Made by a program: the position numbers and the translations under genes. A stretch of 59,625 bases of DNA from Gammaproteobacteria bacterium AqS3 (GTDB taxonomy: Bacteria > Pseudomonadota > Gammaproteobacteria > MEIF01 > AqS3), in NCBI GenBank assembly GCA_001750645.1, contig MEIF01000008.1, positions 1 to 59,625 of the forward strand, given 5' to 3'. This document shows positions 13,201 through 58,806 of the stretch, in pieces. Under the pieces are notes generated by a model. That model was not told the DNA's origin and did not search any database. It saw only the letters and a program-made list of their open reading frames with translations. Numbering within the stretch: position 1 is the first letter of the stretch; each line of letters starts with the position of its first letter.

Positions 13201-13558
13201 TGGTGGAGGTGGCGGGATTCGAACCCGCGTCCATCTGGCTTCTGACTTTGGCTCTACATGCTTAGATTCGTTTTTGCTTTGACCGCTGACGACCCAACGA
13301 TCAGGGTTCCAGCGGCGAGCCTGAGGTTTGATTTGACACGCCGGATACAGGCACCCCCGGTGTGCGAGCCTGCTGAACGACCTGAAAGCCGGACCCGCAG
13401 GCTGGTCTGGTTTCAGGATGACCGAGATTTAGGCGGCCATTTGTAACTGGTGTGAGTTGCCAATTATCTTTTCACAGTCGATTTTTAACGAGAACTAACT
13501 GCGATCTCTCGGCATGCACCTCCGTGTTCGGTCCCGATGTCAATGCCGGAACACCCCC
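13201..13558 (-). ncRNA. ssrA: tmRNA (transfer-messenger RNA)
   Basis: Rescues stalled ribosomes and tags the unfinished peptide. The 5' end GGGGGTG (13558-13552) pairs with the 3' CACCTCC before the encoded CCA (13203-13201). The T arm GCGGG TTCGAAT CCCGC is intact, and the 5' domain contains the conserved GGTGCATGCCGAG. In the mRNA-like part the frame ending at TAA reads GNSHQLQMAA. This would be the proteolysis tag: Gly resume codon and an MAA end instead of the common LAA. About 358 nt, a normal length. A -10-like TATAAAAT lies just upstream (13578-13571). Confidence 0.93.
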
Positions 13559-49356: not shown

Positions 49357-49768
49357 CCACCAGCTCAGACTCTTAAACGAAGGTCGAAAAGCATGCTATC
49401 ACTGAAAGCATGAATCGTACGAAGTAACAAGAGCCGATGGGAATAAATCCGAAATTTTGACCGTTTGCCTAATGCATCCGAAATTTTTCTCAGCTTTGAA
49501 ACGCTAGCAGAAGAACCAACAATTGTGAAAACTAGCTAGACGTTCCGCCATCGACATCAGGCGGATTGTCAGGTTGTCTTCAATCCACTTAATTTTCGGC
49601 GACGTATCCAGCTTTTGGACCTGCCGACATACCGCCTGACACTGCCGCCGAAACCGCAGAAAAACAGGGCTGAAAGCCTCCTAAATGAGACGGCTTGACA
49701 ACCCCCCCCTCTCTGATACCTTGACAAGGTCAAGTTGATTTTGTTCACACCCAGGGAGGGTAGACATC
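49357..49768 (+). other. AT-richer intergenic region with candidate operator
   Basis: About 410 bp without a convincing gene and clearly less GC-rich than the surroundings. A perfect inverted repeat CTTGAC-AAG-GTCAAG (49720-49734) includes a TTGACA that could serve as a -35, about 35 bp before the start of the exported-protein gene; this is a candidate regulated promoter. On the minus strand ~49500-49660 there is a stop-free stretch of about 50 codons with protein-like composition but no usable start, perhaps a gene remnant. A GGGAGGG ribosome-binding site lies just before 49769. Confidence 0.5.
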
Positions 49769-50218
49769 ATGAAAAAACTAACTGCTGCTTTAATCGCCGT
49801 GTTCCTGTTTCCGGCATCGTTTGCGTTGGGAGGGGAACACCCCGCGTCGTTTCCACTCGGGGACATCACGCCCGACCCCAGTGAATTGGAGTTCGCTTTT
49901 CACACCACTCCCGAATCTGCTCGTCCCTTGGATGAATATCAGATGGAAGAGACCGAGGGTGAAAGGATAACTAGAATGGATGTCATTGTAGTTATTGCCC
50001 GACCGATAGTAGTAGAGTTTCTCTACCATTATTTCGTGTATAACTCACACGGAGGTTCAGATCTTTGGGAGATGGGGTACAACTCTTCAAGAGGAGGTTT
50101 GGGCGGTCTCCCTTGGCCACACGACAGCTCCATTCGTACTTCTATCAATTCGGTTGATCGTTTTCTACACGAACTCGGCGGCACGGATGAAATTCCCCCC
50201 AACGGCATCATTCGTTAA
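49769..50218 (+). CDS. Small exported protein with leader-like motif (putative C39 substrate)
   Basis: 149 residues: a Sec signal peptide (1-~22), a hydrophilic region, the segment LDEYQMEETEGE (~55-66) that looks like a bacteriocin-type leader end (spaced hydrophobic residues before a Gly-x site), then a very hydrophobic stretch (MDVIVVIARPIVVEFLYHYF), and a Gly/Ser-rich end with NSHGG and RGGLGG. Strong GGGAGGG site upstream. It is followed by a C39 peptidase and an outer-membrane barrel, so it is the best candidate for their substrate. No homologue is recognised; the role is inference. Confidence 0.65.
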   Translation: MKKLTAALIAVFLFPASFALGGEHPASFPLGDITPDPSELEFAFHTTPESARPLDEYQMEETEGERITRMDVIVVIARPIVVEFLYHYFVYNSHGGSDLWEMGYNSSRGGLGGLPWPHDSSIRTSINSVDRFLHELGGTDEIPPNGIIR

Positions 50219-50234
50219 AAGCCCGACCTGAATT

Positions 50235-50274
50235 CTGAGCCTCCCAGTGTTTAACCCAAAACTGGGAGGCTCAG
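50235..50274 (+). promoter_or_regulatory. 14-bp hairpin covering the C39 gene's ribosome-binding site
   Basis: Perfect inverted repeat: the arm at 50235-50248 pairs with 50261-50274 around a 12-nt loop. There is no T run, so it is not a standard terminator. The 3' arm contains GGGAGG (50264-50269), which sits 7 nt before the TTG start of the C39 gene. The hairpin would therefore hide that site and could also stabilise the upstream mRNA, giving much substrate and little processing enzyme. Confidence 0.7.
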
Positions 50275-50276
50275 TC

Positions 50277-50924
50277 TTGCGGCGGGTTTTGCTTTTTTCT
50301 CTTGGGACGCTGTTTTTATCCATGCCGATCACCGGCCAAGAATTGAGGCAGACAACTCAGCCCCAGTGGTTGCCGAGCAAACCTCAGACTTGGCGGGAAC
50401 TGAAAAGGCAGCGGGTGGAGATGCAGGACTTGGACTATTCCTGCGGCGCGGCAGCTCTGGCGACACTTCTAAGGGAGTTCTACGGCGTAGAGACGAGCGA
50501 GGTGAGAGTGCTTCAGCGCATGCAAAAGCAGACCGCCGCATCACTTGCTGACTTGGCCAAGGTTGCGGATATCTATGGGTTCAGAGCTGTCGGCTACTGG
50601 CTTCCACTGTCCGATCTGTTGAAGCTGAAAATTCCCGCTCTGGTGCATCTGGTCTACCGTAGCGAGGGACACTTTTCTGTCGTTCAAGGAATTCGCACCG
50701 ATGGTCTTGTCGCTCTGGCCGATCCGTCTTGGGGCAATCAGAAACTATTGCCTCATCAATTTGAGGAGCTTTGGGACACAGATGGTACCGGCGGCGGCAA
50801 GGTATTGCTGATTATTCCCAAGCACAGAGGCCGCACCATGCGAGGCGACTTTTTCAGCCCGCCCAGCGGTGCAGTCTCTGCTTATGAGGGCTTGCGATTT
50901 ATTCGTCCGTCTAACGACCCATGA
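50277..50924 (+). CDS. C39-family cysteine peptidase, stand-alone, exported
   Basis: 215 residues from TTG 50277, chosen because GGGAGG lies 7 nt upstream and the protein then begins with a clean signal peptide (MRRVLLFSLGTLFLSMPITG). A GTG at 50247 would start inside the hairpin loop and is less likely. The catalytic Cys is in LDYSCGAAALATLL, the His in GHFSVVQGI and the Asp in LADPSWGNQ, the C39 triad. Unlike bacteriocin exporters, it has no ABC transporter part, and it would act in the periplasm as FapD does in Pseudomonas. The stop overlaps the ATG of the barrel gene by 4 bp. Confidence 0.85.
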   Translation: MRRVLLFSLGTLFLSMPITGQELRQTTQPQWLPSKPQTWRELKRQRVEMQDLDYSCGAAALATLLREFYGVETSEVRVLQRMQKQTAASLADLAKVADIYGFRAVGYWLPLSDLLKLKIPALVHLVYRSEGHFSVVQGIRTDGLVALADPSWGNQKLLPHQFEELWDTDGTGGGKVLLIIPKHRGRTMRGDFFSPPSGAVSAYEGLRFIRPSNDP

Positions 50925-51841
50925 AGGCAATTGGAACTTTTGCAGTTCTGCTCTGCGTTGCGGGCTTTCCATCGTCGACATTCGCCCTGAGCGATGAAGG
51001 TCTGCCGCTGAGAATTGAAAACCTGCTCGCACCCACTGGGGGTTCTGAGATCAGCCTCGGCATCAGCCACACGGCGAGCGACGCATTTCCACGCCGGTTT
51101 GACCTTCTGAGTGCATCAATGGGTTACAGCTATGGATTGAATAAAAATGCTGAATTGGCCCTCAATCTGCGCGGCGTCTATGTTGACGAGCGCGCCAGTT
51201 TTGGTCGGTTCAGCTATGCCGATACACAGACACGCATCAGCACCCTAGATGCAGAGTTGGGTCATCGTTTTTCGCCGGAGAACGAGACACCCGGGATCTA
51301 CGGACGTTTCGGAATCACCCTCCTTGAAAACAGAGCACAGGAGGGCGAGGATTTTGAGGCGTTGAGCGGAGACTTCTCCGCAAGCCTTGCGCTGTATCGA
51401 ACCTATGACCCGATTGTTCTCCGCCTCTCCATCGCCTATCGCAACACCGTCGGGCGGCAGACAACTGACGGTGATTACTACGACAGCGGCGACACCGTGA
51501 CCATCAGTCCGACTGTCTCTTTTGCCGTCAACCATCTCATCAGCATCTCCGCTATAGGCGACGTGCAGGTCATCCAGAAAAACGAGATCAACAGCCGGAA
51601 CATCGCGGGGGACTACCGCAGAACCATCGTCCGGGCGGGGTTGGGATTGAGCCTGTCCATCAGCGACCGGACGACTCTCTACGCAAGCGGCTCGCTAGTC
51701 GCCAGCGGTCAGGATGAGGCGAGCGTTGGCCTGTTTATCAGGCACAGGCTGAGGCGGCAGTCAGTGGCCGGCAAGATACCCAAGCCCGATATGGGGGAAA
51801 TATTCAACGAACCGCAGCCCTCACAGCTGCCTAAAAATTGA
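50921..51841 (+). CDS. Outer-membrane beta-barrel protein (transporter-like)
   Basis: 306 residues with a signal peptide (~1-22). The rest is alternating amphipathic strands with Gly/Ser/Tyr turns (SASMGYSYGLNKNAELALNLRGVYV, ... TISPTVSFAVNHLISISAIGDV ..., VRAGLGLSLSISDRTTLYASGS), about twelve candidate strands. This resembles the meta-pathway phenol degradation/FapF-like barrels that often accompany C39 peptidases. ATG overlaps the C39 stop (ATGA), so both are translated together. The C-terminal ~25 residues are a periplasmic-looking proline-containing tail. Export of the neighbouring small protein is inferred. Confidence 0.7.
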   Translation: MKAIGTFAVLLCVAGFPSSTFALSDEGLPLRIENLLAPTGGSEISLGISHTASDAFPRRFDLLSASMGYSYGLNKNAELALNLRGVYVDERASFGRFSYADTQTRISTLDAELGHRFSPENETPGIYGRFGITLLENRAQEGEDFEALSGDFSASLALYRTYDPIVLRLSIAYRNTVGRQTTDGDYYDSGDTVTISPTVSFAVNHLISISAIGDVQVIQKNEINSRNIAGDYRRTIVRAGLGLSLSISDRTTLYASGSLVASGQDEASVGLFIRHRLRRQSVAGKIPKPDMGEIFNEPQPSQLPKN

Positions 51842-57347: not shown

Positions 57348-57949
57348 TTATTCGCTGCCCGTTCCGTTATTTAACAACTGATCGTGCCAGTCCTTCCGAG
57401 CTGGTAAATCTTGGCGGCTGTCAAGCTCTTTGCCGATATTTTCCAAAAAACGGATTCTGCAATTTTCGTTCAATATCGTAAATATCGCGTGAATGATTTC
57501 ATCCAGACCAATAATGTAGATATTAAAGCCGGACGCCCATTCCTGTTTTGTGATCGCTTCAATTTTTTCTCTGTCGCCCGGCTTGATGCCTGCACATGAG
57601 CCAGCGTCAGATTCATGTCCTTAACTTCCACCACCAGACATACCTCGTCATTTGATAGGTAATATTTTGTTCGTCAAGTCTGGCTGGCGGCCAACGATTT
57701 AAGCACCAACTTAAATGCGTCCCGCAAATCTTGACTAGAGCCTGCCTCTAAATTTTCAAAAAATTTTACAAGCCGATTCCACCAACCTGATGGTTATCAG
57801 TAACCCAGGGAACCACAACAGCTGTTGAAAAACTTCTGGCATCCCAAATTAACCAAGGCATCGATTTCAGGATCAATTTTCCTATCACTGTCATTGAGGA
57901 TATGGAGCCACTGTTTGTCCAGCCACTCACAAACCTCATCGTTATTCAT
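57348..57949 (-). pseudogene. Decayed restriction endonuclease gene (SacI-family-like)
   Basis: The methylase stop overlaps an ATG (TAATG, 57949), and the frame starts well: MNNDEVCEWLDKQWLHILND. It then needs a shift to continue as DARSFSTAVVVPWVTDNHQ, returns to the first frame (GWWNRLVKFFENL), crosses an in-frame TGA, and continues DEVCLVVEVKDMNLTLAHVQAS, then another shift to EKIEAITKQEWASGFNIYII...LPARKDWHDQLLN before a stop at 57348. The pieces follow the order of SacI-like endonucleases (DARS.., then VEVKD, then ASG-N-IY). It is also shorter than such enzymes, so there are deletions too. Inactive. Confidence 0.75.
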
Positions 57950-58806
57950 TAATAATTCATCCAGAGTGATTCCTGCCTCAACGTTCGGACGGAATGGCAA
58001 TTACGAGGAGGTGCGTCAACCCGCCTCCAATCACCAAACAGGTGATCATATAGGGCAGTTCGATAGCCGGAAACTGCTGCTTTGCCCTTAATCAATTTGA
58101 GCGCAGCCGCCAGCAACTCATGATCGTTGTCACTCATCTCATAAGCATAAGCAGAACTGTCACTGCGGGAAGAATGCACATAAGGAGGGTCGATGTAGAA
58201 AAAAGTTTCTGGGCTGTCGTATCTGGATATCACTTCAAGACCGGATGCGTTCTCGATTTGAACCCTCTGAAACCGCTGGGCAACCTCAGCCAAATCTTCC
58301 ACCGATCCCAGCCACCAGGACACCGCGCCCGCCATTCCCGAGCGAGAAGTCAGCACGCAATGCGCCCATCGACCTTTGCTGCTCGTCTGTGCCAGCCCTG
58401 TTCGAGTTTGGCGGGCTCTCACATAGAAGCGTCTCGCCCGCTCAAGATCAGAAAGACCCTCTTCTTGATTGCAGGCTATGGCCAGCTCTTCACGAGAAAA
58501 CGGGGTCAGGCCGATCAATCTGATCAGTTCATCATATTGATCGCGCAAAGTGCGAAAGAAATTAACCAGTTCAGAGTCAATATCGTTATAGGTTTCCACC
58601 GGATAGGGATTGACATTCATTAATACGACCGCAGAACCTCCGAACACGTCACAAAAATGACCTGCTTCGGGCGGAAAGTTTAGTATCAAGAAGCCAAGGT
58701 GAGAGTACTTCCCTCCATACCATCCAAAAGCAATCTTTCGCCCGCCTTTTCTGCGGGAGGATTTAAGGCCATTCTCAGGCCTTCTCTTTTTGACAGAAAA
58801 AATCAT
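57949..58806 (-). CDS. DNA adenine methyltransferase (D12/Dam class)
   Basis: N6-adenine methyltransferase of a former restriction-modification pair. 285 residues. SAM-binding motif FGWYGGKYSHLG plus FCDVFGGSAVVLMN (27-64), the ETYNDIDSELVNFFRTL stretch, and catalytic D206-P-P-Y209 (FFYIDPPYVHSS) in the order I of Dam-like enzymes; the C terminus ends RQESLWMNY as in this class. No frameshift or stop is seen, so it may still methylate. Its stop overlaps the start of the decayed endonuclease gene. Base composition is markedly lower in GC than the housekeeping genes, consistent with acquisition by transfer. Confidence 0.9.
   Translation of the reverse strand: MIFSVKKRRPENGLKSSRRKGGRKIAFGWYGGKYSHLGFLILNFPPEAGHFCDVFGGSAVVLMNVNPYPVETYNDIDSELVNFFRTLRDQYDELIRLIGLTPFSREELAIACNQEEGLSDLERARRFYVRARQTRTGLAQTSSKGRWAHCVLTSRSGMAGAVSWWLGSVEDLAEVAQRFQRVQIENASGLEVISRYDSPETFFYIDPPYVHSSRSDSSAYAYEMSDNDHELLAAALKLIKGKAAVSGYRTALYDHLFGDWRRVDAPPRNCHSVRTLRQESLWMNY

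What the first reader, a model, noticed from the sequence alone, without database searches (positions are those of the whole stretch)
49769..51841. Compact three-gene unit: exported small protein, stand-alone C39 peptidase, outer-membrane barrel
The genes are tightly arranged (28-bp gap with a hairpin, then a 4-bp overlap) in an island less GC-rich than its surroundings. The first gene product has a Sec signal, a leader-like LDEYQMEETEGE, a strongly hydrophobic core and a Gly-rich tail. C39 peptidases normally cut at such leaders. The layout parallels Fap (FapD peptidase and FapF barrel) reduced to a minimum, without FapA/B/C/E homologues. It may be a small processing and export pathway for an amyloid-like or antimicrobial peptide.
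Basis: partly seen in the sequence, partly recalled or inferred. Interest (0 to 1): 0.75.

Follow-up and report, generated by a model that had tools for sequence, protein, structure and literature searches.

The report
Haemocin-type bacteriocin secretion operon, multi-copy family
The three genes look like one copy of a family of small operons that send a protein across the inner membrane, trim it in the periplasm and pass it out through an outer-membrane barrel, probably to attack competing bacteria; the same genome holds many copies whose delivery parts are alike but whose payloads differ.

Summary
The unit is not a one-off. The same genome has 7 C39 paralogues, at least 6 barrels and 11 leader-bearing ORFs, arranged as promoter, precursor, C39, barrel. 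The precursors share a Sec signal plus a C39-type leader (LSxxEMxxxxG) and then carry unrelated cargo of 18-312 residues. Seven copies share a promoter with a C7/C8 tract in the -35/-10 spacer. Most paralogous units have a small multi-TM gene beside them, sometimes in arrays with barrel-tail remnants, as expected of immunity genes; the window copy has none. The barrel folds like FapF. In other genomes 26 of 27 barrel relatives have the C39 within about 3 kb. Both trees separate the window family from Fap and group it with Gly-zipper bacteriocin-like operons. The haemocin operon (HmcD barrel, HmcC C39, HmcA leader, HmcI immunity) and probably the Neisseria nap island are of the same kind. Best reading: a Sec, periplasmic-C39, FapF-like-barrel exporter for a bacteriocin-like product, present as a polymorphic and possibly phase-variable family. 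Export is inferred from homology. Toxicity, immunity function and phase variation are untested.

The parts
49695..49722 (+). Promoter-like block TTGACA-A-C8-TCTCTGA-TACCTT (16-bp spacer containing a run of 8 C); nearly identical in seven units of the genome, tract C7 or C8
   Evidence: function inferred. The generic sigma-70 scan did not list it
49720..49734 (+). Inverted repeat CTTGAC-AAG-GTCAAG beside the -10 (operator-like), perfect in some copies
49769..49960 (+). Precursor, conserved part: Sec signal peptide (about residues 1-22) plus C39-type leader ending LDEYQMEETEG (G64)
   Evidence: 56-66% identical to the long-cargo paralogues and 39-48% to the others; dN<dS
49961..50218 (+). Precursor, cargo of 85 residues after G64 (ERITRMDVIVVIARPIVVEFLYHYF...): hydrophobic start, Gly-rich tail, no detectable homologue
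50218..50290 (+). Strong hairpin followed by a T-rich run; possible leaky terminator/attenuator. Its 3' arm holds the GGGAGG ribosome-binding site of the C39 gene
   Evidence: z=-6.8; a related stem occurs in paralogue C125
50277..50924 (+). Stand-alone exported C39 peptidase; Q50, C56, H132, D149 (numbered from TTG 50277) invariant in 11 relatives
50921..51841 (+). FapF-like outer-membrane barrel, 12 predicted strands (residues 42-276), signal peptide, no coiled-coil domain

Best explanation
The unit is a dedicated secretion operon for a bacteriocin-like product, of the same kind as the haemocin (hmc) operon. Step 1 (inferred from sequence): the precursor crosses the inner membrane by Sec and signal peptidase removes the first signal. 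Step 2 (inferred from conservation and homology): the periplasmic C39 peptidase recognises the second, LSxxEMxxxxG-type leader and cuts next to G64. Step 3 (inferred from fold and linkage): the freed cargo leaves through the FapF-like barrel. Step 4 (inferred from other loci): the cargo acts against neighbouring bacteria, and the multi-TM proteins beside most paralogous units protect the producer. The genome holds many such cassettes with conserved promoter, leader, C39 and barrel and swapped cargo; the poly-C promoter may switch them on and off.
For: Barrel: AlphaFold model with 12 strands; the 18 best PDB matches are all FapF, E to 4.5e-14; sequence profile also finds FapF first, though weakly, E=0.011. 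Linkage: 26 of 27 barrel relatives in other genomes have the C39 within about 3 kb, as do G771, G913, an Acinetobacter plasmid and haemocin plasmid p250. Leader: the same motif is next to C39 and barrel in G127, G272, G169, G605, G771, G913, two Acinetobacter plasmids and HmcA. Bacteriocin nature: operon relatives encode Gly-zipper cargo (weak hit of G127 to the class IIb lactobin A/cerein 7B model, E=0.0044, below its cut-off) plus small TM genes; p250 annotates the C39/barrel operon as haemocin with an immunity protein, and HmcD and HmcC match the profiles at E=1e-27 and 4e-38. Trees put the window with this group, support 100/98 (C39) and 100/100 (barrel). Cassette behaviour: leaders 56-88% identical among the long-cargo units while cargo is unalignable apart from a shared C-terminal region in three; purifying selection on leader, C39 and barrel; immunity-like genes tail-to-tail with barrels and in tandem arrays with barrel-tail remnants.
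Against: The window copy itself has no immunity-like neighbour. Its cargo has no homologue and is not an obvious Gly-zipper peptide. Several paralogous cargos are 209-312 residues, larger than classical microcins. The Neisseria Nap peptides, a likely relative system, showed no killing of competitors (PMC11798529). The multi-TM genes match no known immunity family. Nothing here is experimental.
Confidence: 0.6

Rival explanations
1. Polymorphic surface or host-interaction system: the same export route, but the cargo are displayed or released proteins that vary for adhesion, antigenic change or symbiosis, and the TM genes are not immunity proteins.
For: Long cargo with shared C-terminal part in three copies, shared poly-C promoters as in phase-variable surface proteins, many copies in one genome.
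Against: Short hydrophobic cargo in C183/C154 and bacteriocin-like relatives elsewhere; TM genes in tandem arrays next to barrel tails.
Confidence: 0.18
2. Minimal Fap-like system exporting an amyloid subunit for biofilm.
For: FapF fold of the barrel and C39 whose best NCBIfam model is FapD, though far below its cut-off.
Against: Falls outside the Fap clade in both trees; no FapA/B/C/E partner, no amyloid repeat family in cargo; barrel lacks room for the FapF coiled coil.
Confidence: 0.1
3. Self-directed lysis peptides, like the Neisseria Nap peptides, released at stationary phase.
For: The nap island combines GG peptides, a C39 peptidase and a FapF homologue, with phase-variable tracts (PMC11798529); named plasmid-collection hits with highest identity to the window C39 include N. 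gonorrhoeae, 44%.
Against: Immunity-like arrays argue for inter-strain conflict; window cargo is not cationic (charge -3).
Confidence: 0.08

Closest known systems
Haemocin operon (hmcD, C39, hmcB, hmcA, hmcI), Avibacterium paragallinarum plasmid p250 and Haemophilus influenzae
   Same: HmcD matches the barrel profile (E=1e-27), HmcC the C39 profile (4e-38), HmcA has Sec signal plus LSQKEMSEVKGG leader
   Different: Haemocin has a separate AAA ATPase (HmcB) and an immunity gene; cargo is a small 4-Cys peptide; single operon rather than a family with swapped cargo
nap island of Neisseria gonorrhoeae (NapP, NapF, NapABC)
   Same: C39 peptidase, FapF homologue, GG-leader peptides, possible immunity gene, homopolymer tracts (PMC11798529)
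   Different: Several short cationic peptides per island; tracts lie inside genes rather than in the promoter; one island per genome; NapP/NapF were not aligned here
Fap functional amyloid system (FapD, FapF)
   Same: Periplasmic C39 plus 12-stranded FapF barrel (PMC5557850)
   Different: Separate clade; window lacks FapA/B/C/E, amyloid repeats and the coiled-coil domain
Class II microcins exported by C39-ABC transporters
   Same: Double-glycine-type leader removed by a C39 peptidase
   Different: No ABC transporter; peptidase and precursor each carry a Sec signal, so processing would be periplasmic

Membership tests
Haemocin-type C39/barrel bacteriocin operon | Stand-alone C39 peptidase with signal peptide and intact catalytic residues | tested here: met
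   signal peptide judged by eye, not with a predictor
Haemocin-type C39/barrel bacteriocin operon | HmcD/FapF-like outer-membrane barrel | tested here: met
Haemocin-type C39/barrel bacteriocin operon | Precursor with Sec signal followed by C39-type leader | tested here: met
   window motif is a slightly degenerate LDEYQMEETEG
Haemocin-type C39/barrel bacteriocin operon | Adjacent immunity-like gene | tested here: not met
   absent at the window copy, present beside most paralogous units
Haemocin-type C39/barrel bacteriocin operon | Antibacterial activity | not testable with these tools
   needs experiment
Fap amyloid system | FapD and FapF equivalogs by NCBIfam cut-offs | tested here: not met
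   C39 66 bits against cut-off 330; barrel no match
Fap amyloid system | FapA, FapB, FapC, FapE partners or amyloid repeats | tested here: not met
   no hits in the unit
Class II microcin type I secretion | C39 domain fused to an ABC transporter | tested here: not met
   215-aa stand-alone protein; all 7 C39 matches in the genome lie in frames of 218-236 codons
Phase-variable promoter | Homopolymer tract in the -35/-10 spacer | tested here: met
   C7 or C8 in seven copies
Phase-variable promoter | Tract length varies within a population and changes expression | not testable with these tools
   no reads or expression data

The most novel reading that the evidence does not exclude
One bacterium carries a polymorphic, phase-variable arsenal of two-membrane bacteriocins: a constant promoter, two-stage leader, periplasmic C39 and FapF-like barrel deliver interchangeable payloads of about 20 to 310 residues, while arrays of orphan immunity genes record past payloads.
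Probability: 0.4. Interest if true: 0.8.

Novelty: new variant of a known kind. Interest (0 to 1): 0.66.

Why it matters
It links haemocin, probably the Neisseria Nap peptides, and Fap by one export route that bypasses type I secretion: Sec, then a periplasmic C39, then a FapF-like barrel. It offers a leader motif for finding such products in Gram-negative genomes. It also suggests a target for FapD, reported as unclear in PMC5557850: FapE homologues carry the same kind of motif right after the signal peptide. The payload-swapping family with immunity-like arrays would extend the polymorphic-toxin principle to this route.

Tried and rejected
Two genome-contig scans (precursor, C39 alignment) found nothing. 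The precursor has no phage relative and none in 93 class relatives. The structure of the precursor is low confidence, pTM 0.22. A minimal-Fap membership was rejected on trees and missing partners. A plain C39-ABC microcin system was rejected because there is no ABC transporter. Polymorphic-toxin processing by Tox-PLC39 domains (PMC3482391) was considered and set aside: there the peptidase is the toxin domain. I did not fetch the Neisseria nap locus; its description rests on the paper.

Full report
What is there. The three genes, the 4-bp overlap, the low-GC island and the hairpin are confirmed. The C39 gene probably starts at TTG 50277, not GTG 50247. The hairpin lies between precursor and exporter genes and is followed by a T-rich run, so it may reduce expression of the peptidase and barrel relative to the precursor (inference).

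The same genome has many copies. Searching the window's own assembly with the C39 protein gives seven loci, the six others 52-68% identical. The precursor's first ~64 residues recur in ten further ORFs. Complete precursor-C39-barrel units occur at C213 (window), C111 (two), C125, C17 and C183; a third C111 unit has a frameshifted barrel, and C148 and C154 give precursors whose contigs end or whose neighbours are broken. Additional barrels without a nearby C39 occur on C143 and at the end of C111. Several units sit at contig ends, so the count is a lower bound and some arrays could be affected by assembly; the window unit is inside a 59-kb contig between unrelated genes.

Constant and variable parts. 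Leaders of the long-cargo units are 77-88% identical to each other and 56-66% to the window, with a common end LSxxEMxxxxG. After that G the sequences diverge: cargo lengths range from 18 to 312 residues and the pairwise identities are at noise level, except for a C-terminal region shared by C111a, C111c and C148. Leader, C39 and barrel evolve under purifying selection. The register equals the classical LSxxELxxIxGG leader (established knowledge of C39 substrates), with the last position relaxed (E, R, K, D, N, Y, A, G, S), so whether the cut is after G64 or residue 65 is open.

Promoter. In seven copies the ~75 bp before the start codon are nearly identical and include TTGACA-A-C(7 or 8)-[T/A]CTCTG-A/C-TACCTT and a GGGAGGG ribosome site; in C17 the similarity stops just upstream of it. 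A C-tract in the spacer is the classic arrangement for phase variation, but only between-copy differences are seen here.

Immunity-like genes. Three families of small multi-TM proteins accompany the units. Families A and B (about 125-190 aa) lie tail-to-tail with the barrel at C111b, C111c, C125, C17, C143 and the end of C111; family C lies just before the short precursors of C183 and C154. Family A has ten copies genome-wide plus a fragment, including a tandem triple on C111 separated by remnants of barrel 3' ends. That is what repeated replacement of toxin units, leaving orphan immunity genes, would leave behind. They match no known immunity family, so the role is inferred. The window unit has none.

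Other genomes. Barrel profile searches of 369 class, 399 phylum and 11 family genomes gave 27 distinct loci outside the window's genome; 26 have a C39 of this family within about 3 kb. G127, G272, G605 and G913 encode leader-bearing precursors with Gly-zipper-like cargo, some with small TM genes; G169 has a true GG leader with a short Cys-containing cargo; G771 has a haemocin-like cargo. C39 and barrel trees agree: the window family plus G127, G272, G169 and G605 (and G202 in the C39 tree) form one side, the Fap-type loci the other, support 100/98 and 100/100. G605 is on a long branch and its exact place is unsure.

Fold and named relatives. The barrel model (mean pLDDT 72.5, pTM 0.68, 12 strands) matches FapF in its 18 best PDB hits. 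In the plasmid collection the C39 finds N. gonorrhoeae, Acinetobacter plasmids and others. The annotated haemocin operon of plasmid p250 has exactly these components: HmcD barrel, C39, HmcA with Sec signal and LSQKEMSEVKGG, HmcI immunity, plus an ATPase. An Acinetobacter plasmid carries two precursors with nearly the same leader and different cargo, each followed by its own small gene. The nap island (PMC11798529) is described with the same components, and its peptides promote autolysis rather than killing of competitors. Haemocin is described as a bacteriocin in the title of LiPuma 1990, seen as a reference in PMC10986600.

Conclusion. The route Sec, periplasmic C39, FapF-like barrel is well supported by homology and linkage (about 0.8). 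A bacteriocin role for the family is the best reading (about 0.6), less certain for the window copy, which lacks an immunity-like neighbour. The amyloid reading is unlikely.

Shown: gene anatomy, paralogy, leader conservation with cargo divergence, co-occurrence, barrel fold match, tree placement. Inferred: signal peptide use, cleavage, export, toxicity, immunity, phase variation.

Noticed in passing
L096:3967-4767(-), L101:3615-4385(+): FapE homologues (NCBIfam NF058559, below its equivalog cut-off) carry LSDSELGQQRG / LDDTELNAMRG right after the signal peptide, making FapE a good candidate for the unidentified FapD target.
   Followed up: partly
L131:1514-4563: A 2.2-Mb genome (G771) carries a haemocin-like operon: barrel, 4-Cys precursor, HmcI-like and ATPase genes, C39.
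   Followed up: partly
L160:2385-5543: Acinetobacter plasmid with two precursors of nearly identical leader but different cargo, each followed by its own small gene.
   Followed up: partly
L036:7111-9353: Tandem triple of multi-TM genes interleaved with remnants of barrel 3' ends.
   Followed up: yes
L156:7318-8232(-): Barrel paralogue with a tail-to-tail multi-TM gene but no C39 or precursor detected upstream.
   Followed up: no
window 57949-58806(-): Dam-like DNA adenine methylase gene (by eye) near a low-GC patch at the end of the contig, possibly a mobile element.
   Followed up: no
window 13201-13558(-): tmRNA gene predicted (tag GNSHQLQMAA), with a second overlapping doubtful call.
   Followed up: no
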